Origin: Luteimicrobium subarcticum
Lineage (GTDB): Bacteria; Actinomycetota; Actinomycetes; Actinomycetales; Cellulomonadaceae
DNA length: 64,000 nt
Reading direction: 5' to 3'
NCBI RefSeq assembly: GCF_002798015.1
Contig: NZ_PGTZ01000007.1
Location: forward strand, 186,001-250,000
In this document: positions 25,879-36,286 of the stretch, piece after piece
Layout of the letters: each line of letters begins with the position of its first letter
Numbering within the stretch: position 1 is the stretch's first letter
The notes under the pieces: model-generated
What the model saw: the letters and a program-made list of their open reading frames with translations, nothing else
Told to the model about the DNA's origin: nothing
Databases searched by the model: none
Made by a program: the position numbers and the translations under genes

Positions 25879-27444
25879 TCAGGACCGCAGGGACGGGAAC
25901 GCGGCGTCCCGGACGTGCGCGTATTCGTGGCGGACGTGCGGGGCGGGCTCCGCCTCGAAGGTCACCGTCCCGGCGGACGCGGCGCCCCACGAGGGCGGCT
26001 CATCACCCCCGGCGAGAACCCAGGCGGCCTGCCGGGCGGCACCGTCGGCGACGTACTCGCCGGCGGGCGGCACCTCGACCGGGCGTCCGAGGACGCTCGG
26101 AGCCACGTGCCGGACGGCCTCGGACCGCGCGGCCCCGCCGACCAGACGGACCCGCTGGACGTCCACACCCTGCCGGACGAGCGCGTCGAGCCCGTCGGCG
26201 AGCCCGCACAGCATGCCCTCCACGGCGGCGCGAGCGAGGTGCTCGGGGGTCGCCGTGGCGAGCCGCAGGCCGTGGACCGACCCGGTGGCGTCGGGCAGGT
26301 TGGGGGTGCGCTCGCCCTCCAGGTAGGGGAGCAGGACGAGTCCGTCCGCCCCGGCGGGTGCGGCGAGCGCGAGCCGGGACAGCCCGTCGTGGTCGACGCC
26401 CAGCATCCGGCAGGCCGCGTCGAGCACCCGGCTCGCATTGAGCGTCACGCCGAGCAGCAGGTAGCGTCCGGTCGCGTCGGCGAACCCGTTGACCAGCCCG
26501 GACGCGTCGGCGCTGGGTCGGTCGGCCACGGCGGACACGACGCCGGACGTACCGAGCGAGACGGTGACGTCTCCGGCGCGCATGCCGAGCGCGAGAGCGG
26601 CCGCGGCGTTGTCGCCGGCGCCCGGTGCGAGCACGGCGCCGACAGTGGTCCCGTCGACGACGCGGCCGGCGTGCGCGGGATCCGCGTGGCCGCCGTCCTG
26701 CGCCGGTCCGAGGACGCGGGGGAGCACGATCTGCCGGGCGACCGACTCGTCGACCCGCAGGGCGAGGGCGAGCAGGTCGTAGCGGTAGGCTCCCCGGCCG
26801 TCGTCGCCCGAGGCGTCGAAGTACCCGGTGCCTGACGCGTCGGACCGGTCGGTGACGAGGGCGGCGAGGTCGGGCTCGAGGTCCTGCGAGACAGGTCCGT
26901 AGCCGGCGATGCGCCAGGTGAGCCAGTCGTGGGGGAGCGCGACGGCGGCGATCCGGTCGACGAGCTCGGGCTCGTGGTCGGCGACCCAGCGCAGCTTGGT
27001 GGCGGTGATGGACGCGACGAGCACGGACCCGGTGGCCCGGGCCCACGCCTCGGCACCGAGCTCGGCGACGAGGTCGGCGGCGGACGACGCCGACCGGGTG
27101 TCGTTCCACAGCAGCGCGGGGCGCAGCACCTCGCCGTCGGCGTCGAGCAGGACCATGCCGTGCTGCTGCCCGCCGACGCCGAGGGCGGCGACGCCCGCGT
27201 CGCCGGTCAGGCCACCGGCCGCGGCCGACGCCTCGCAGAACGCGTCCCACCAGGCGTCGGGGTGCACCTCGGTGCCCTCGGGGTGCTTGGCCGACCCGGA
27301 CCGGACGAGCTCGCCCGTCGCGGCGTCGCGGACGACGACCTTGCAGGACTGGGTGGACGAGTCGACGCCGGCGACGAGGGTGCGCGCGCCGCCGGGGGCG
27401 GCCGACGCGTGGTCGACCGCCCCCGGGGTGGTGTGCGTGCTCAT
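25879..27444 (-). CDS. xylB: Xylulokinase
   Basis: A 521-residue FGGY-family sugar kinase. [10 protein letters not shown] near the N terminus is the first phosphate motif, [11 protein letters not shown] the substrate segment, and [13 protein letters not shown] with VSLGTSGVV the ATP site. It phosphorylates D-xylulose to D-xylulose-5-phosphate for the pentose phosphate pathway. The ATG overlaps the xylA stop by one base (TGATG on the minus strand), so translation is coupled. A very long open frame runs upstream through xylA in this frame but carries no homology. Confidence 0.93.
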
Positions 27445-28616
27445 CAGCCGATGAGGTGCTTCAGCGCGAGCTGGTGGAGCGCGACGAGCCCGTACTCGCG
27501 CTCGGCGGCGGCGTCCACGTCGAACTCCTCGCGGGTGCTCGGGTCGGCGAGGAACTGCTCGAAGGTCTCGCCCTCGGCGAGGGTCGACTCGCCGAGCTCG
27601 AAGATGCCGGCGTGCTCGAAGGCCTTCTGGACCTCGGGGTCGGCGCGGTACTCGGACGACTTCTTCGCCAGCAGCGTGTAGGTCTCGATGTTGGCGCGCG
27701 CCGAGTCCCAGACGCCGTCGGGGCCCTCGGTCCGGGACGGCTTGTAGTCGAAGTGGCGGGCGCCCTCGTAGCGGGGGCCGCCGTTCGGGAAACCGTTCTC
27801 GAGCATGTCGACCGTGAAGAACGCGGACAGCAGGTCGCCGTGACCGAAGACGAGGTCCTGGTCGTACTTCGGGCCGTGCTGGCCGTTGAGGTCGATGTGG
27901 AAGAGCTTGCCGGCGTAGAGCGCGAGCGCGAGGCCGTGCGTGTAGTTGAGGGTGGCCATCTGCTCGTGACCGGTCTCGGGGTTGAGGCCGACGATGTCGC
28001 CGTTGTCGAGCGTCGCGATGAGCGCGAGCGCGTGCCCGATGGACGGCAGGAAGATGTCGCCGCGGGGCTCGTTCGGCTTGGGCTCGAGCGCGATACGGAT
28101 GTCGTAGCCGCGGTCCTTGATGTACGCGGCGACGGTGTCGATGCCCTCGGCGTAGCGGGCGTGCGCGGCGTGCAGGTCCTTCGAGTTGTCGTACTCGACG
28201 CCCTCGCGGCCGCCCCACATGACGAAGGTCTGCGCGCCGAGCTCGGCGGCGAGGTCGACGTTGCGCAGGATCTTGCGCAGGCCGAAGCGGCGCACGCCCC
28301 GGTTGTTCGACGTGAACGCGCCGTCCTTGAACATCGGGTGCGTGAAGGTGTTGGTCGTGACCATCTCGATGACGAGGCCGGTCTCGTCGGCGGCCTTCTT
28401 CACGGAGTCGATGCGGGCGCGGCGGTCCGCGTCGTCGGCGTCGAACGGGAAGACGTCGTTGTCGTGGAACGTGAAGCCCCAGGCGCCGATGTCGGCGAGC
28501 TTGCGGACGGACTCGGCGGGGTCGAGCGCGGTGCGCGTGGCGTCGCCGAACGGGTCCTGCGCCTGCCAGCCCACGGTCCAGAGGCCGAAGGAGTACTTGA
28601 TGTCGGTGCCGCTCAT
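27444..28616 (-). CDS. xylA: Xylose isomerase (class I, actinobacterial type)
   Basis: A 390-residue TIM-barrel enzyme, the usual length for short class I isomerases. Catalytic and metal features are FHDND (His of the ring-opening pair near 51), [19 protein letters not shown] (metal Glu and catalytic Lys near 180) and [16 protein letters not shown] (metal Asp/His). It converts D-xylose to D-xylulose with Mg2+ or Mn2+. ATG follows GAGGAGAG. First gene of xylAB; promoter with TTGACC and TAAGTT overlaps that of the divergent ROK gene. Confidence 0.96.
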
Positions 28617-28629
28617 GGTGGTGCTCTCC

Positions 28630-28683
28630 TCGTCGAGTCTTTGTTGTATGGCTGAACTTATCGACGAAAGCCGGTAGGGTCAA
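28630..28683. promoter_or_regulatory. Divergent xylA/ROK promoter region with operator-like inverted repeat
   Basis: On the minus strand TTGACC (28678-28683) and TAAGTT (28655-28660) are 17 nt apart and serve xylA. On the plus strand TAGGGT (28675-28680) is 6 nt before the ROK start and overlaps the xylA -35. TCGTCGA (28630-28636) and TCGACGA (28661-28667) are inverted around the xylA -10, a likely ROK-repressor site. Confidence 0.6.
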
Positions 28684-28686
28684 CCC

Positions 28687-30012
28687 ATGGAGCCGGTCAC
28701 CACCCCCAAGGCGCGGCAGGCGTCGCTGCGCGAGCACAACCTCGGGCTCGTCGCGCGCGCCGTCTTCGGGGCCGAGCGGCCGCCGTCGCGCGCCGCCATC
28801 GCCGCCGCCACCGGGCTGACCCGCGCGACCGTCTCGACGCTCGTCGACCAGCTCGTCGGCGCCCGTGTCGTGCGCGAGCTGCCGCCCGAGCCGGGCAACG
28901 TCGGACGACCCGCCGTCCCGCTCGTCCCCGCGTCCCGGACCGTCGTCGGGCTGGGGCTCGAGGTCAACGTCGGGTACCTCGGGGTGCGCGCGGTCGACCT
29001 CGCGGGCGACACCGTCGTCGAGCGCATCGAGCGCGGCGACTTCCACGCGAGCGACCCTGCCGTCGTGCTGCCGCGCCTCGCGGACCTCGCCCGCGAGGTC
29101 GTGGCGGGCCTCGACGCCGAGGGCGTGCGGGTCGCGGGCGCGCGGCTCGCCCTCCCTGGCCTGGTCGACGTCCGTGACGGACACCTCGTCGTCGCGCCCA
29201 ACCTCGGCTGGGCCGACCTCGACCCGGTGCCGCTGCTCGGCCCGTTGCGCGCGGCCGACGACATCCGGGTCCGGATCGCCAACGAGGCCAACCTCGCGGG
29301 GCTCGCCCAGCTCCGCTTCGGCTGGTTCGCGGGCGACCGCGCCGGCGACGGTGACGTCCTCGCCGACGTCGCCGAGCGCAGCGCGACGGAGGCTCCGGAC
29401 CTCGCGCGCGGCGGCACGACGTTCGTGTACCTCTCGGTGGACGTCGGCGTCGGCGCCGCCGTCCTCCTCGAGGGCGCCCTCTACGTCGGGCGCCGCGGGT
29501 GGGCCGGAGAGATCGGGCACGTCGCCGTCGAGCCGGACGGCCCTCTGTGCCAGTGCGGTGCGCGCGGCTGCCTCGAGGCGGTCGCGGGCAAGCTCGCGCT
29601 GCTGGCCGCCTTCGGACGCGGGCCGTCCGACGACCTCGACGTCGACGAGATCGCGGTCCGTGCGGCCGCGGGCGACCCCGAGGTGACGGACGTCCTCGAG
29701 CGGGTCGGGACGTTCGTCGGGCGTGCGCTCGCCGCTGTCGTGAACGTCCTCGACGTCGACACGCTGCTGCTCGGCGGCCTCTACGCGACGCTCGCCGACG
29801 CCCTGCACGGCCCGGTGGTCGACGAGCTGCGCCGCCGCGTCCCGGCGCTGCCCGAGCGGCTCGTCGTCGCTGCGGCCCCGGTCGTGGACCACGCCGCCCT
29901 CACCGGTGGGGCGCGGGCGGTCCTCCGGGACGTGGTGCGGACCCCGTCGGCGTTCGTGGGCGCGTCGACCACCGTGTCGCCGGCCGACACGACGGAGCGC
30001 GCCCACCCGTGA
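28687..30012 (+). CDS. xylR: ROK-family transcriptional repressor (XylR-like)
   Basis: A 441-residue protein: N-terminal winged helix-turn-helix (about 15-80; [20 protein letters not shown]) and a ROK sugar-binding domain with the zinc motif [21 protein letters not shown], containing C-x-C-G-x2-G-C-x-E. By position it should repress xylAB and be released by xylose. The ATG is fixed by TAGGGT 6 nt upstream (leaderless). The gene name rests on context; ROK proteins for other sugars look the same. A perfect hairpin overlaps its stop codon. Confidence 0.88.
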
Positions 30013-31413: not shown

Positions 31414-31510
31414 CCAATATGGAAGGGGGCCGTGCAAACCGCGGACGTGCGCGTCGTCGGGCCGGCCCACGAGCGCAACGCCGCACCCACGCGTAAGGAC
31501 GAAGCCCCTC

Positions 31511-33727
31511 ATGGCCCTCACGGCGACCTCCGTCAGCACCGAGACCCACCGCGCACCGGACGGTGCGCCCGCGGCGATCCTCCTCGCCGCCGGCGTGGAC
31601 GACGCCTCGCGCGACCTCCTCGTCCAGCCCCTCGGCGACACCACCGTCGTCCAGCACGCGTTCGAGACCCTGACGCGCGTCGTCGACCGGTCCCGCGTCG
31701 TCGTGGTGGTCGCGCGCGGCGACCAGCGCGTGCGCGAGCTCCTCGGCCCCGACCTCGCCTACGTCGAGCAGGGCGCGTCCCTCGGCACCGGCTCCGCCGT
31801 GCTCGACGCGCGGGGCGCCGTCCCTGCGGACGCCGGCGCGGTGCTCGTCGCCTACGCGGACACGCCGCTCCTGCGCTCCGACTCGCTCCTCGGCCTGCTC
31901 ACGCGGCACCGCCTCAAGGACGCCGACCTCACGTTCCTCACCGCGGTCGTCGACACGCCGCGGTCGACCTACGACCGCGTGGTGCGCCAGGACGGCGACG
32001 TCGTCGCGATCGTCCAGGAGGGCGACCTCGACGCCGAGCACGTCGACAACCACGAGATCAACGTCGGCGCGTACGTCGCCGGGCCCGCGCTGCTCTTCGG
32101 CAGCCTCGAGCGGCTCGTGGCGAGCGGCGCCGGCCGCCTCACCGAGCTCGCGCACACCGTGATCGGCGAGGGCCGCCGCGTCGCCACCTACCAGATCTAC
32201 GACACCGACGAGGTGCACGGGATCAACACCCCGGCCGAGCTCGGCGAGGCCGCGGACATCGTCCTCAAGCGCCTGTTCATGCCGAAGAAGAACACCGACA
32301 CCACGATCCACTTCGGGACCGGCGGCTGGCGCGCGGTCATCGGTGAGGGGTACACGCTCGCGAACGTGCGTCGCCTGTGCCAGGCGATCGCGAACGAGAC
32401 GACCCGGCAGGGCCTCGAGTCGCGCGGCGTGGTGATCGGTGGCGACCGCCGCTTCCTGTCGCACGAGTCGAAGATCGCCGCGGCGGAGGTCTTCGCGGGC
32501 AACAACATCCCCGTCACGCTCCTGCCCGACGACGTCCCGACGCCGCTCGTGACGTTCGCCGCCCCCTACCTCGGCGCGGCGTACGGCGTCATCATCACCT
32601 CGAGCCACAACCCGCCCGAGTGGAACGGCATGAAGGTGTTCCGCCAGGACGGCTCGCTGCCGCTCGACGAGGAGACCGACCGCTACCAGGACGAGGCGAA
32701 CGCGCTGTCCGTGGACGAGGTCATCACGCTCGACATCGACCTGGCGCGGCGGGCCGGCGTCGTCGTCGACCGCGCGCTCACCGACCCGTACATCGACGCG
32801 ATCGAGCAGATCGTCGACGTGGACGCGGTGCGCGGCTCGAACCTCGAGGTCGTCGTCGACCCCATGTACGGGACGAGCCAGCTCACGCTCGGCACGATCC
32901 TCGGTGACATGCGCGTGCGCGCCGACTTCATCCACGAGGCGCACAACCCCCTCTTCGGCGGCGTCGCGCCGGCGCCCGACCTGCAGCGGCTGTCCGCGCT
33001 CATCGAGAAGATCCGTTCGTCCAACGGGCGCTACGGGCTCGGCATGGCGACCGACGGCGACTCCGACCGCATCGGCATCGTCGACGAGACCGGCGAGTAC
33101 ATCTCGACGAACGACCTCCTGCTGCTGCTCTACTGGTACCTCCACGAGGTGCGCGGCGAGAAGGGCGGCGTCGTCCGCAACCTCGCGACGACGCACCTGC
33201 TGGACCGCCTCGCCGCACACTTCGGCGAGGACTCGTTCGAGTGCAAGGTCGGCTTCAAGCACGTCACCGCGGGCATGGAGAAGATCGGCGCCGTGCTCGG
33301 TGGCGAGTCGTCGGGCGGCCTGACGATCCGCGGCTGGATCCTCGGCAAGGACGGGATCTTCGCCTGCGCGCTCGTCGCCGAGATGCTGGCCCGCACGGGC
33401 AAGCGCATCTCCGAGCTGCGCGAGATGGTCTACGCGATCACCGGCCGGCTGTACTCGCTCGAGGCGGGCGTGCCCGCGACGCCCGAGATGCGGGTGGCCG
33501 TGCCGCGCCGGCTCGAGGCGGAGCCCCTCACGCACGTCGGTCCGTACCCTGTGGTCAGCGTGTCGCACCTCGACGGCACCAAGATCCTCCTCGAGGACGA
33601 CAACTGGGCGCTCCTGCGCTTCTCCGGCACCGAGCCGGTCCTGCGCATGATCGTCGAGGCCGACAGCCCGGAGAAGGCCGCCGAGCTCCTCGACTGGCTG
33701 CAGGGCTTCGTCACCGCGGGCGTCTGA
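31511..33727 (+). CDS. Fusion of a GlmU-like nucleotidyltransferase domain with a phosphohexomutase
   Basis: A 738-residue two-domain protein. Residues 1 to about 250 resemble the GlmU uridyltransferase half: LAAG, VEQGASLGTGSAV, YADTPLL, HEINVGAY and GINTPAEL are present, but the nucleotide loop G-x-G-T-R-M and the following Pro-Lys are missing (LAAGVDDASRD instead). Residues about 260-738 are a phosphoglucomutase/phosphomannomutase-type enzyme: Ser365 in SSHNP (phosphoserine), ATDGDSDRIG (metal site, about 517) and GGESSGG (sugar site). It should interconvert a hexose-1-phosphate with the 6-phosphate made by the downstream phosphorylase. Whether the first domain is active is doubtful. Confidence 0.85.
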   Translation: MALTATSVSTETHRAPDGAPAAILLAAGVDDASRDLLVQPLGDTTVVQHAFETLTRVVDRSRVVVVVARGDQRVRELLGPDLAYVEQGASLGTGSAVLDARGAVPADAGAVLVAYADTPLLRSDSLLGLLTRHRLKDADLTFLTAVVDTPRSTYDRVVRQDGDVVAIVQEGDLDAEHVDNHEINVGAYVAGPALLFGSLERLVASGAGRLTELAHTVIGEGRRVATYQIYDTDEVHGINTPAELGEAADIVLKRLFMPKKNTDTTIHFGTGGWRAVIGEGYTLANVRRLCQAIANETTRQGLESRGVVIGGDRRFLSHESKIAAAEVFAGNNIPVTLLPDDVPTPLVTFAAPYLGAAYGVIITSSHNPPEWNGMKVFRQDGSLPLDEETDRYQDEANALSVDEVITLDIDLARRAGVVVDRALTDPYIDAIEQIVDVDAVRGSNLEVVVDPMYGTSQLTLGTILGDMRVRADFIHEAHNPLFGGVAPAPDLQRLSALIEKIRSSNGRYGLGMATDGDSDRIGIVDETGEYISTNDLLLLLYWYLHEVRGEKGGVVRNLATTHLLDRLAAHFGEDSFECKVGFKHVTAGMEKIGAVLGGESSGGLTIRGWILGKDGIFACALVAEMLARTGKRISELREMVYAITGRLYSLEAGVPATPEMRVAVPRRLEAEPLTHVGPYPVVSVSHLDGTKILLEDDNWALLRFSGTEPVLRMIVEADSPEKAAELLDWLQGFVTAGV

Positions 33728-33823
33728 CCCTCCGCCCGGCGCGCGTCACCCCGACAGCAGCCCTCCCGCACGCCAGCCTCGCCACCCCACCACCCCCGCA
33801 CGAGCAAGGAACCCCCGCCCACC

Positions 33824-36286
33824 ATGCGCTACGGATTCTTCGACACCGCCGCCGACGAGTACGTCATCGACCGCCCGGACGTCCCGGTGTCCTGGACCAA
33901 CTACCTCGGCACCAAGAACCTCTGCACGGTCCTGTCGCACCACGGTGGCGGGTACTCGTACTACAAGTCGTCGGAGTACGGGCGCATCACCCGGTTCCGC
34001 CAGAACGGCGTCCCGCTCGACCGGCCGGGGCACTACGTGTACCTGCGCGACGACGCGGACGGCGACTACTGGTCCGTGTCCTGGCAGCCCGTCGGCAAGC
34101 CGCTCGACGACCCGGCGAACCCGGCCGTCTACACGACGCGCCACGGGCTCGGGTACACGCGCTTCGAGGCGCAGTACAAAGGCATCGACGCCAGCCAGAC
34201 CGTCTTCATCCCCCTGGACGACGACGTCGAGCTGTGGGACGTGCGCCTCACGAACACGACGGACGAGGTCCGCGAGCTGACCGTCGCGGGGTACGTGGAG
34301 TTCTCGTTCCACACCATCTCGATCGACAACCAGAACCTGCAGATGTCGCTCTACGCGTCCGGCTCCTCGTACGAGGACGGGATCATCGAGTACGACTTCT
34401 ACTACGAGCCGTGGACGTTCCACTACTTCACGTCGAGCGAGACGCCGTCGTCGTACGACTCGCTGCGCGACAACTTCGTGGGCCCGTACCGCACGGAGAC
34501 GAACCCGGTCGCGATCGAGCGCGGCGAGGGCACCAACCAGTCCGCGACGACGCAGAACCACTGCGGCGCGCTGCAGCACAAGGTCACGCTGCAGCCGGGC
34601 GAGACGAAGCGTCTCGTGTACGTGCTGGGCTACGGCTCGCGTGACGGCGTGGGCCGCGACATCCAGAAGAAGTACGCCGACGTCGTGTCGGCGCCGGCCG
34701 AAGGCCGCACGCCGGCTGTCGACGCCGAGTTCCAGCGCCTGCGCGACCACTGGCGCGCCAAGCAGGACAAGCTGCGCATCCGCACGCCGCACGAAGGCAT
34801 GAACACGATGATCAACGCCTGGACGCTGCTCCAGGCGGAGACGTGCGTGCAGTGGTCGCGCTTCGCGTCCTTCGTCGAGGTGGGTGGCCGCAACGGTCTG
34901 GGCTACCGCGACACGGCACAGGACGTCATGAGCGTCATCCACTCCAACCCGGTCAAGACGCGTCAGCGGATCGTCGAGCTGCTCCGGGCGCAGGTGGAGG
35001 CGGGCTACGGCCTGCACCTGTTCGACCCGAAGGCGTTCGACCCGGACGCCGAGAAGCTGCCCGACGTCCCGTCGCCGACGATCGTCCCGACGAAGGACCC
35101 GAAGGACCTCATCCACGGGCTCGAGGACACCTGCTCGGACGACCACCTGTGGCTCGTCCCGTCGGTCGTCGAGTACGTCAAGGAGACGGGCGACCACGGC
35201 TTCCTGGACCTCGAGATCCCTTTCGCGGAGGGCACGGCGGCGACCGTGTACGAGCACCTGCGCCGCGCGCTGCAGTTCTCGGCGGAGCAGGTCGGCCCGA
35301 ACGGTGTCGCGCTGGGTCTGCGGGCCGACTGGAACGACTGCCTCAACCTGGGCGGCGGCGAGACGTCGCTCGTGACGTTCCTGCACGCGTGGGCGATCCG
35401 GGCCTTCCTGGAGGTCGCTGAGCCCCTGGCCGCCGCCGGTCGTCCGGGTGCGGGCGACGACGTCGCGCGCTGGACCACCGAGCTCGACCGGATCCGCGGC
35501 GTCGCCGACAGCGAGCTGTGGGACGGCGACTGGTGGATCCGCGGCTACACCCGGGACGGCGTGAAGATCGGCTCGGCGCAGAACGACGAGGGCAAGATCT
35601 TCCTCGAGCACCAGGCATGGCCCGTCATCGCGGGGATCACGAGCCAGGAGCGCGGGGAGCGGTCCATGGACTCGGTGCGCGAGCTCCTCGGCTCCGAGTA
35701 CGGCAACCACCTGAACTGGCCGGCGTTCACGAAGGTCGACGACACGGTCGGGTTCGTGACCCGCGTGTACCCGGGCATCAAGGAGAACGCCGCGATCTTC
35801 TCCCACCCGAACGCGTGGCCGATCATCGCCGAGGCGCTCCTCGGCCGCGGCGACGAGGCCGTCGCGTTCTACGACGCGATCCTCCCGTACCACCAGAACG
35901 ACAACATCGAGGTGCGCGGTGCCGAGCCGTACGCCTACGTGCAGTTCCTCTACGGGCGCGACCACGAGTGGTTCGGCAAGGCGCAGAACCCGTGGCTGAC
36001 CGGGACCGCCGGCTGGATGTACACCGCGGTCACCAAGTACGTGCTGGGCGTGCGGCTCACGCTCGACGGCCTCGTCGTCGACCCGTCCGTCCCGAAGGAC
36101 TGGGACGGCTTCGAGGTCCGTCGCGAGTGGCGTGACGCGGTCTACGAGATCGAGGTCCGCAACCCTGACCACGTGTCGCACGGCGTGGCGTCGGTGACGG
36201 TCGACGGTGTCGAGCACCCGGTGGGCGAGCCGGTGCCGGCGGCGCCGGCGGGTTCGACCGTGAGCGTCGTCGTCACGCTCGGCTGA
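33824..36286 (+). CDS. GH94 disaccharide phosphorylase, chitobiose-phosphorylase-like
   Basis: An 820-residue GH94 enzyme. The general acid is Asp505 in ADWNDCLNLGGGE. It uses phosphate to split a beta-linked disaccharide to a sugar and an alpha-sugar-1-phosphate, in the cytoplasm. From memory, segments such as NYLGT, DRPGHYVYLRDD, VEVGGR-GLGYRDTAQD and VTRVYPGIKENAAIFSHPN match Vibrio N,N'-diacetylchitobiose phosphorylase better than Cellulomonas cellobiose phosphorylase, which has GFRDSNQDL at the same place. It follows the mutase fusion by 96 bp on the same strand, and a strong hairpin ends it. Confidence 0.85.
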   Translation: MRYGFFDTAADEYVIDRPDVPVSWTNYLGTKNLCTVLSHHGGGYSYYKSSEYGRITRFRQNGVPLDRPGHYVYLRDDADGDYWSVSWQPVGKPLDDPANPAVYTTRHGLGYTRFEAQYKGIDASQTVFIPLDDDVELWDVRLTNTTDEVRELTVAGYVEFSFHTISIDNQNLQMSLYASGSSYEDGIIEYDFYYEPWTFHYFTSSETPSSYDSLRDNFVGPYRTETNPVAIERGEGTNQSATTQNHCGALQHKVTLQPGETKRLVYVLGYGSRDGVGRDIQKKYADVVSAPAEGRTPAVDAEFQRLRDHWRAKQDKLRIRTPHEGMNTMINAWTLLQAETCVQWSRFASFVEVGGRNGLGYRDTAQDVMSVIHSNPVKTRQRIVELLRAQVEAGYGLHLFDPKAFDPDAEKLPDVPSPTIVPTKDPKDLIHGLEDTCSDDHLWLVPSVVEYVKETGDHGFLDLEIPFAEGTAATVYEHLRRALQFSAEQVGPNGVALGLRADWNDCLNLGGGETSLVTFLHAWAIRAFLEVAEPLAAAGRPGAGDDVARWTTELDRIRGVADSELWDGDWWIRGYTRDGVKIGSAQNDEGKIFLEHQAWPVIAGITSQERGERSMDSVRELLGSEYGNHLNWPAFTKVDDTVGFVTRVYPGIKENAAIFSHPNAWPIIAEALLGRGDEAVAFYDAILPYHQNDNIEVRGAEPYAYVQFLYGRDHEWFGKAQNPWLTGTAGWMYTAVTKYVLGVRLTLDGLVVDPSVPKDWDGFEVRREWRDAVYEIEVRNPDHVSHGVASVTVDGVEHPVGEPVPAAPAGSTVSVVVTLG

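What the first reader, a model, noticed from the sequence alone, without database searches (positions are those of the whole stretch)
31511..36286. Mutase fusion plus GH94 enzyme may form a chitobiose, not cellobiose, phosphorolysis unit
Seen: a nucleotidyltransferase-phosphohexomutase fusion followed closely by a GH94 enzyme with intact general acid (Asp505). Known: Vibrio chitobiose phosphorylase makes GlcNAc-1-phosphate and sits beside a mutase of this superfamily. Inferred: GH94 motifs (VEVGGR-GLGYRDTAQD, DRPGHYVYLRDD, FSHPN) match that enzyme better than Cellulomonas cellobiose phosphorylase, and a GlmU-like domain fused to the mutase also points to GlcNAc-1-phosphate. Automatic naming as cellobiose phosphorylase could be wrong.
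Basis: partly seen in the sequence, partly recalled or inferred. Interest (0 to 1): 0.7.

Follow-up and report, generated by a model that had tools for sequence, protein, structure and literature searches.

The report
Chitobiose-splitting operon with fused GlcNAc-1-phosphate mutase
These two neighbouring genes of a Luteimicrobium-like soil bacterium most likely split the chitin fragment chitobiose with phosphate and feed the product into N-acetylglucosamine breakdown; the chemistry is known from Vibrio, but here the second enzyme carries an extra, apparently inactive, GlmU-like domain that might act as a sensor.

Summary
Both genes are real and at the stated coordinates. The GH94 protein groups with Vibrio proteolyticus chitobiose phosphorylase (57% identity, 1032 bits), not with cellobiose phosphorylases (37%, at most 518 bits; tree support 100/100). 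The pair is fixed: in 79 related genomes the fusion and this phosphorylase occur in the same 14, and they are adjacent in 24 of 25 named contigs. A Subdoligranulum plasmid carries the same phosphorylase followed by an unfused mutase of the same family. A palindromic operator 69 bp upstream, modelled from the homologous loci, recurs at the start of a ROK repressor, ABC transporter, sugar kinase and nagB operon in 11 of 11 relatives examined, at nagA, and at chitinase genes. This places the pair in a GlcNAc/chitin regulon. One part needs changing: the GlmU-like domain has the GlmU fold (Z about 30) but lacks the GxGTRM...K nucleotidyl-transfer loop in 23/23 homologues, so it is probably a pseudoenzyme, perhaps a UDP-GlcNAc sensor. 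New variant of a known kind.

The parts
31415..31441 (.). Palindrome-like operator, 69 bp upstream of the fusion ATG; predicted binding site of a ROK-family (NagC/CsnR-like) repressor
   Evidence: A weight matrix built from 20 homologous loci without the window ranks this site first on both strands of the 64 kb window. The same matrix hits the ROK-ABC-kinase-nagB operon, nagA and a chitinase gene elsewhere in the genome.
31511..33727 (+). Fusion gene, 738 aa: GlmU-like domain plus phosphohexomutase; predicted GlcNAc-1-phosphate mutase with a non-catalytic sensor or structural domain
   Evidence: Pfam/NCBIfam; orthologues in 25 named contigs; AlphaFold2 model, mean pLDDT 84
31565..32299 (+). 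GlmU-like (UTP:GlcNAc-1-P uridylyltransferase) domain that lacks the GxGTRM...K loop; probable pseudoenzyme
   Evidence: Model pLDDT 90, GlmU fold with VIA Z 30.1 over 238 residues at 2.3 A. G16, T17, R18 and K25 of GlmU absent in 23/23 homologues; Q76, D105 and N227 kept in 23/23.
32300..33724 (+). Phosphohexomutase domains I-IV with active-site TSSHNP, metal loop DGDSDR, sugar loop GGESSGGLT and phosphate loop RFSGTEP
   Evidence: Pfam; these motifs are invariant or nearly so across 23 sequences, unfused relatives included; fold match to PGM/PMM enzymes, VIA Z about 46
33824..36286 (+). GH94 N,N'-diacetylchitobiose phosphorylase (predicted), 820 aa, general acid Asp505, donor-site loop R647-V648-Y649
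   Evidence: phmmer 1032 bits to 1v7v against 518 or less to cellobiose phosphorylases; tree; site comparison

Best explanation
The two genes form the cytoplasmic core of a chitobiose catabolic pathway. Imported (GlcNAc)2 is split by the GH94 enzyme with phosphate into GlcNAc-1-phosphate and GlcNAc. The mutase half of the fusion converts GlcNAc-1-phosphate to GlcNAc-6-phosphate, so one of the two sugars is phosphorylated without ATP. The free GlcNAc is probably phosphorylated by the ROK-type kinase of the nagB operon, and NagA and NagB then feed both sugars into glycolysis. A ROK-family repressor encoded with the transporter, kinase and nagB controls the pair through a common operator. The N-terminal domain is descended from the GlmU uridylyltransferase but has lost the loop that binds and activates the nucleoside triphosphate. 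It may bind UDP-GlcNAc, or another GlcNAc nucleotide or phosphate, and adjust mutase activity; that step is inference and about as likely as a structural or decaying remnant. Shown by computation: gene structure, family placement, pairing, operator and its positions, loss of the catalytic loop. Inferred: substrate, direction of flux, repressor identity and the role of the dead domain. The confidence given is for the chitobiose pathway, not for the sensor role.
For: GH94 identity. Fusion and phosphorylase in exactly the same 14 of 79 relatives (Fisher p 8e-16, not corrected for kinship), and adjacent in 24 of 25 named contigs. Unfused mutase of the same family directly downstream of a 54%-identical phosphorylase, followed by ABC sugar-transport genes, on a Subdoligranulum plasmid. 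In Vibrio the neighbouring gene VC0611 is given as GlcNAc-1-phosphate mutase next to VC0612 (GlcNAc)2 phosphorylase (PMC5209532). Operator shared with the ROK regulator-SBP-permease-permease-ROK kinase-nagB operon: best hit in 10 of 11 regions and second best in the eleventh. It also lies at nagA in 10 of 13 genomes and at a GH18 chitinase 44 bp upstream of its ATG. In two genomes the nagB operon lies next to the pair (L167, L168). Chitinase (GH18) genes average 4.3 in genomes with the pair against 0.9 without. Dead loop; GlmU fold; purifying selection on the domain, dN/dS 0.08-0.47; separate intact GlmU in the genome.
Against: No assay. Only V. proteolyticus, V. furnissii and Ignavibacterium album enzymes are listed as characterised chitobiose phosphorylases (PMC8950772), and PDB entry 8bou carries the same name while lying in a third clade, so names in GH94 are a weak guide. 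Three of the 14 genomes with the pair have no GH18 gene. nagA sites are weak in several genera. The operator type also occurs before chitinases in genomes without the pair. The sensor role rests on residue conservation alone, and the window's own copy has also lost two sugar-contact residues (G140 to D, E154 to Q).
Confidence: 0.85

Rival explanations
1. The fusion is a working bifunctional enzyme: its N-terminal domain uridylylates GlcNAc-1-phosphate from chitobiose directly to UDP-GlcNAc for the cell wall, while the mutase sends the rest to catabolism.
For: GlmU fold with Z about 30; uridine-, sugar- and Mg-contact positions Q76, T82, D105, N169 and N227 kept in 22-23 of 23 homologues; the domain is under purifying selection.
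Against: The loop G16-T17-R18...K25 is missing in 23/23 homologues and shortened; a complete separate GlmU is present; the G069 copy has lost a further internal stretch. A basic residue aligns near K25 in 12/23 copies, but the window has Gln there.
Confidence: 0.08
2. The pathway is as proposed, but the GlmU-like domain is a vestigial or purely structural add-on with no ligand (a rival only to the sensor part of the best explanation).
For: It evolves several times faster than the mutase half (dN/dS 0.08-0.47 against 0.013-0.13). The G069 copy has lost the YGR and ExN segments. Unfused relatives of the mutase exist.
Against: dN/dS is still well below 1, no copy among the 25 named contigs has dropped the domain, and the ligand-contact positions are conserved while the catalytic loop is not.
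Confidence: 0.4
3. It is a cellobiose (or other beta-glucoside) phosphorolysis unit with a phosphoglucomutase, as the automatic name suggests.
For: Same GH94 fold and catalytic residues; four genomes with the pair also carry a cellobiose-type GH94 gene, so this substrate is in reach of these bacteria.
Against: Tree and scores; R-V-Y loop in 19/19 of the chitobiose group where 13/13 cellobiose enzymes have Tyr-Pro; those four genomes keep a separate cellobiose enzyme; GlcNAc regulon.
Confidence: 0.04
4. The regulon serves chitosan/glucosamine rather than chitin, as with CsnR of Streptomyces, and the phosphorylase has another amino-sugar disaccharide as main substrate.
For: The ROK-ABC-kinase-nagB operon resembles the csnREFGHK cluster of Streptomyces, whose repressor CsnR responds to chitosan oligomers (PMC6097792).
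Against: nagA and chitinases share the operator here. The operator core differs in spacing from the CsnR site given in PMC4856308. The closest characterised enzyme uses (GlcNAc)2.
Confidence: 0.08

Closest known systems
Vibrio (GlcNAc)2 operon: VC0612 (GlcNAc)2 phosphorylase and VC0611 GlcNAc-1-phosphate mutase (PMC5209532, PMC12282291)
   Same: Same phosphorylase family (57% identity to V. proteolyticus ChBP); paired with a phosphohexomutase; part of a chitin/GlcNAc regulon with an ABC-type transporter
   Different: The mutase carries an extra GlmU-like pseudo-domain; the pair stands alone, with transporter, kinase and nagB usually elsewhere under the same operator; the predicted regulator is a ROK repressor rather than ChiS. 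The VC0611 sequence itself could not be fetched for comparison.
GlmU N-terminal domain (GlcNAc-1-phosphate uridylyltransferase)
   Same: Fold (VIA Z 30.1) and most nucleotide/sugar/Mg contact positions
   Different: No GxGTRM...K loop; no acetyltransferase domain; fused to a mutase
GMPPA, the non-catalytic paralogue that binds GDP-mannose and regulates GMPPB (PMC11228364, abstract)
   Same: Possible analogy: a sugar-nucleotide pyrophosphorylase relative turned regulator
   Different: GMPPA acts on its active paralogue; here the domain is fused to a mutase of the same pathway, and no binding is shown
csnREFGHK cluster and CsnR of Streptomyces (PMC6097792)
   Same: ROK repressor encoded with its own ABC transporter and kinase, self-regulated by a palindrome
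   Different: Here the operon includes nagB, and the operator also marks nagA, chitinases and the fusion-phosphorylase pair

Membership tests
GH94 chitobiose phosphorylase (EC 2.4.1.280) | Sequence groups with characterised chitobiose phosphorylase, apart from cellobiose phosphorylases | tested here: met
   bootstrap/SH-aLRT 100/100 for the clade with 1v7v
GH94 chitobiose phosphorylase (EC 2.4.1.280) | Inverting GH94 catalytic apparatus: general acid Asp, -1 subsite and phosphate-site residues | tested here: met
   R362, D363, W503, D505, E654, H661, T726, G727
GH94 chitobiose phosphorylase (EC 2.4.1.280) | Phosphorolysis of (GlcNAc)2 to GlcNAc-1-phosphate and GlcNAc | not testable with these tools
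   Needs an assay
GH94 cellobiose phosphorylase (EC 2.4.1.20) | Falls inside the clade of Cellulomonas and Clostridium cellobiose phosphorylases | tested here: not met
   37% identity to 3rrs and 8hob
GlcNAc-1-phosphate mutase (phosphohexomutase superfamily) | Phosphoserine TxSHNP, metal DGDxDR, sugar-binding and RxSGTEP loops | tested here: met
   invariant columns S365-H366-N367-P368, D515-G516-D517-x-D519-R520, G598-E599-S600-S601-G602-G603, R703-F704-S705-G706-T707-E708-P709
GlcNAc-1-phosphate mutase (phosphohexomutase superfamily) | Activity on GlcNAc-1-phosphate | not testable with these tools
   Supported only by pairing with the phosphorylase and by VC0611 in the literature
Canonical GlmM (phosphoglucosamine mutase) | Over the TIGR01455 or TIGR03990 cut-off | tested here: not met
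   140.6 of 447.6 bits and 262.1 of 439 bits
Functional GlmU uridylyltransferase domain | GlmU nucleotidyltransferase fold | tested here: met
   VIA Z 30.1, 238 residues, 2.3 A
Functional GlmU uridylyltransferase domain | Signature loop GxGTRM...PK with catalytic Arg and Lys | tested here: not met
   Absent in 23/23

The most novel reading that the evidence does not exclude
The dead GlmU-like domain is an allosteric sensor of UDP-GlcNAc (or UTP/GlcNAc-1-P) that switches a catabolic GlcNAc-1-phosphate mutase according to the cell's need for wall precursor: a sugar-nucleotide pyrophosphorylase turned into a regulatory domain in cis.
Probability: 0.35. Interest if true: 0.6.

Novelty: new variant of a known kind. 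Interest (0 to 1): 0.45.

Why it matters
If right, a set of Micrococcales (Luteimicrobium, Cellulosimicrobium, Oerskovia, Demequina and others) degrade chitin dimers by phosphorolysis, a route best documented in Vibrio, and their GH94 genes should not be read as evidence of cellobiose use. A family-wide GlmU-like pseudo-domain on a catabolic mutase would be a clean, testable case of a biosynthetic enzyme recruited as a sensor in the same pathway. The predicted ROK operator gives a defined regulon to test.

Tried and rejected
TIGR03851 (NgcE-type chitobiose-binding protein) does not reach its cut-off in this genome, so the uptake protein is not of that curated type. The full-length fold search only reported the mutase half, so the N-terminal domain was folded alone. 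Key structural papers on C. gilvus CBP and on cellobionic acid phosphorylase, which compare with ChBP, are not in the library, so the link of Val631 to the N-acetyl pocket rests on my memory; only the clade-specific pattern is shown. The window's own ROK gene (28687-30012), next to xylA, was considered as the regulator; it is only 33% identical to the nag-cluster ROK and sits beside xylose genes, so it is more likely a xylose regulator. The L082 contig without an adjacent GH94 is not a loss: the gene is at the edge of another contig of that genome. The Vibrio mutase sequence could not be fetched with the tools left, so mutase kinship to VC0611 is by literature, not by alignment. A literature search for a GlmU-mutase fusion found no paper with all terms, which is weak evidence of novelty.

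Full report
What is there. The window lies in a Luteimicrobium-like genome (3.63 Mb, 14 contigs), whose nearest named relatives are Luteimicrobium xylanilyticum and L. album. A 738-aa gene (31511-33727) joins a GlmU-like N-terminal domain to a four-domain phosphohexomutase, and 96 bp later a GH94 gene (33824-36286, 820 aa) follows on the same strand. The flanking genes (NlpC/P60, DUF4190, exonuclease III, SDR) are unrelated and change between genera, so the unit is these two genes.

Which GH94 enzyme. Against the PDB the protein scores 1032 bits with V. proteolyticus chitobiose phosphorylase 1v7v and at most 518 bits with any cellobiose phosphorylase. Aligned identities are 57% and 37%. A maximum-likelihood tree of 37 GH94 proteins puts it with 1v7v at 100/100, apart from a cellobiose group that holds the Cellulomonas and Clostridium enzymes, and apart from a third group that holds PDB 8bou. 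Long branches are present, so fine placements are unsure, but the split of interest has a long, fully supported branch. The conserved GH94 residues for the -1 subsite, general acid and phosphate are all kept (residue roles from PMC5309861). The loop before the conserved KEN motif reads R-V-Y in 19/19 of the chitobiose group, while 13/13 cellobiose enzymes have Tyr then Pro there. From memory, Val631 of the Vibrio enzyme lines the pocket of the N-acetyl group; I could not check that in the papers held.

Pairing. In 79 related genomes the fusion domain and this phosphorylase occur in the same 14 genomes. Of 25 named contigs with the fusion, 24 have the phosphorylase directly downstream, with gaps of 27 to 127 bp where measured; in the 25th it lies at the edge of another contig. 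In G069 the two genes are 2 bp apart. In a Clostridia plasmid (Subdoligranulum) a 54%-identical phosphorylase is followed by an unfused mutase of the same family and by ABC sugar-transport genes, which suggests that the pair is older than the fusion. In Vibrio the corresponding gene VC0611 is described as GlcNAc-1-phosphate mutase (PMC5209532).

Regulon. A weight matrix trained on the upstream regions of 20 homologous loci, without the window, ranks the site 31415-31441 first on both strands of the 64 kb. In this genome the matrix (by then with the window site added) scores at least 15 at three other places among the stretches examined: 44 bp upstream of a 650-aa GH18 chitinase with CBM5/12, directly before nagA, and directly at the start codon of a ROK-family regulator that heads an operon of solute-binding protein, two permeases, ROK kinase and nagB. 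None of 72 control pieces of 2.6 kb reaches 15 (highest 14.9). In 11 related genomes with the pair that operon is conserved, and the matrix's best hit in regions of 11 to 18 kb lies at the ROK start in 10 and is second best in the eleventh, where the best is at nagB. At nagA the best hit in 2 kb lies just upstream of the gene in 10 of 13 genomes, though weakly in some. In two genomes the nagB operon lies within a few kb of the pair. In two other Luteimicrobium genomes a pattern search for the operator core gives only two hits each, at the fusion and upstream of a GH18 gene. The relatives are not independent samples, so I read these counts as strong but not as exact probabilities. GH18 genes are more frequent in genomes with the pair (mean 4.3 against 0.9; within the family 4.6 against 1.4, p 4e-4), with three exceptions that have none.

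The fused domain. Folded alone, the domain gives a confident model (pLDDT 90) that matches GlmU best (VIA Z 30.1, 238 residues, 2.3 A). Yet the GlmU loop LAAGxGTRMxxxxPK reads LAAGxDxxSRxLL and is shorter in all 23 homologues: glycine 16, threonine 17, arginine 18 and lysine 25 (E. coli numbering, from general knowledge) are absent in 23/23, although a basic residue aligns near Lys25 in 12. Positions that contact uracil, Mg and sugar are kept: Q76, D105, N227 in 23/23, T82 and N169 in 22/23; G140 and E154 in 20 and 17, but not in the window's copy. The domain is under purifying selection (dN/dS 0.08-0.47) but weaker than the mutase half (0.013-0.13). The genome has a complete separate GlmU. 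I conclude that the domain is very probably not a working uridylyltransferase. A ligand-sensing role is the most interesting reading and I give it 0.35; a structural or decaying remnant is about as likely.

Mechanism proposed. Chitinases release (GlcNAc)2; the ABC transporter imports it (inferred); the GH94 enzyme phosphorolyses it; the mutase converts GlcNAc-1-P to GlcNAc-6-P; the ROK kinase phosphorylates the free GlcNAc (inferred); NagA and NagB complete the path. The phosphorylase saves one ATP per dimer. The ROK repressor probably senses a pathway sugar and controls all these genes. Substrates and regulation are inferred from sequence and need the assays listed.

Comparison and verdict. 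The unit works like the Vibrio chitobiose phosphorylase-mutase pair and meets the sequence features of that enzyme family; it fails the clade test for cellobiose phosphorylase. The new element is the fused pseudo-GlmU domain and the ROK operator.

Noticed in passing
L107:8928-15255 (G000:C1) and L161-L171: Conserved ROK regulator-SBP-permease-permease-ROK kinase-nagB operon in 12 genomes, with a palindrome (about GTTAGTAAxGxxxCTTTACTAAC) at the regulator's start codon; it looks like a csn-type cluster converted to GlcNAc use.
   Followed up: partly
L153, L154, L155, L157: Similar operator matches upstream of GH18 chitinases in genomes that lack the fusion-phosphorylase pair, so the chitin regulon may be older than the pair.
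   Followed up: no
L104:2220-5777 (G333:C9): An unfused relative of the mutase (41% identity) in a putative operon with a separate nucleotidyltransferase (MARGLGTRM loop intact) and a GHMP kinase: possible sugar salvage set and a hint how a nucleotidyltransferase came to be linked to this mutase.
   Followed up: partly
L087:900-7226 (Ardenticatenia MAG): Unfused relative of the mutase (51% identity) between ABC sugar-transport genes and a NAGPA-type phosphodiester glycosidase; no GH94 was seen on this 13.5 kb contig.
   Followed up: no
L016, L017, L018 and G062:C58: A third GH94 group (about 44% identical to the window protein, with PDB 8bou) lies in tandem with a cellobiose-type GH94 gene in several Micrococcales; its specificity is unclear although 8bou is named a diacetylchitobiose phosphorylase.
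   Followed up: no
L084:10001-12158 and L044 (Luteimicrobium album): The fusion gene is broken into three frames in the L. album assembly; this may be a sequencing error or real decay.
   Followed up: no
L105:7099-9771 (G069): The most distant fusion has lost an internal stretch of the GlmU-like domain (the YGR and ExN segments) and has a long repetitive N-terminus, which argues against uridylyltransferase activity there.
   Followed up: partly
window 25879-30012: Xylose locus (xylB-type kinase, xylA-type isomerase, ROK regulator) next to the unit, with a weak ROK-like site at 28637-28661 between xylA and the regulator.
   Followed up: partly
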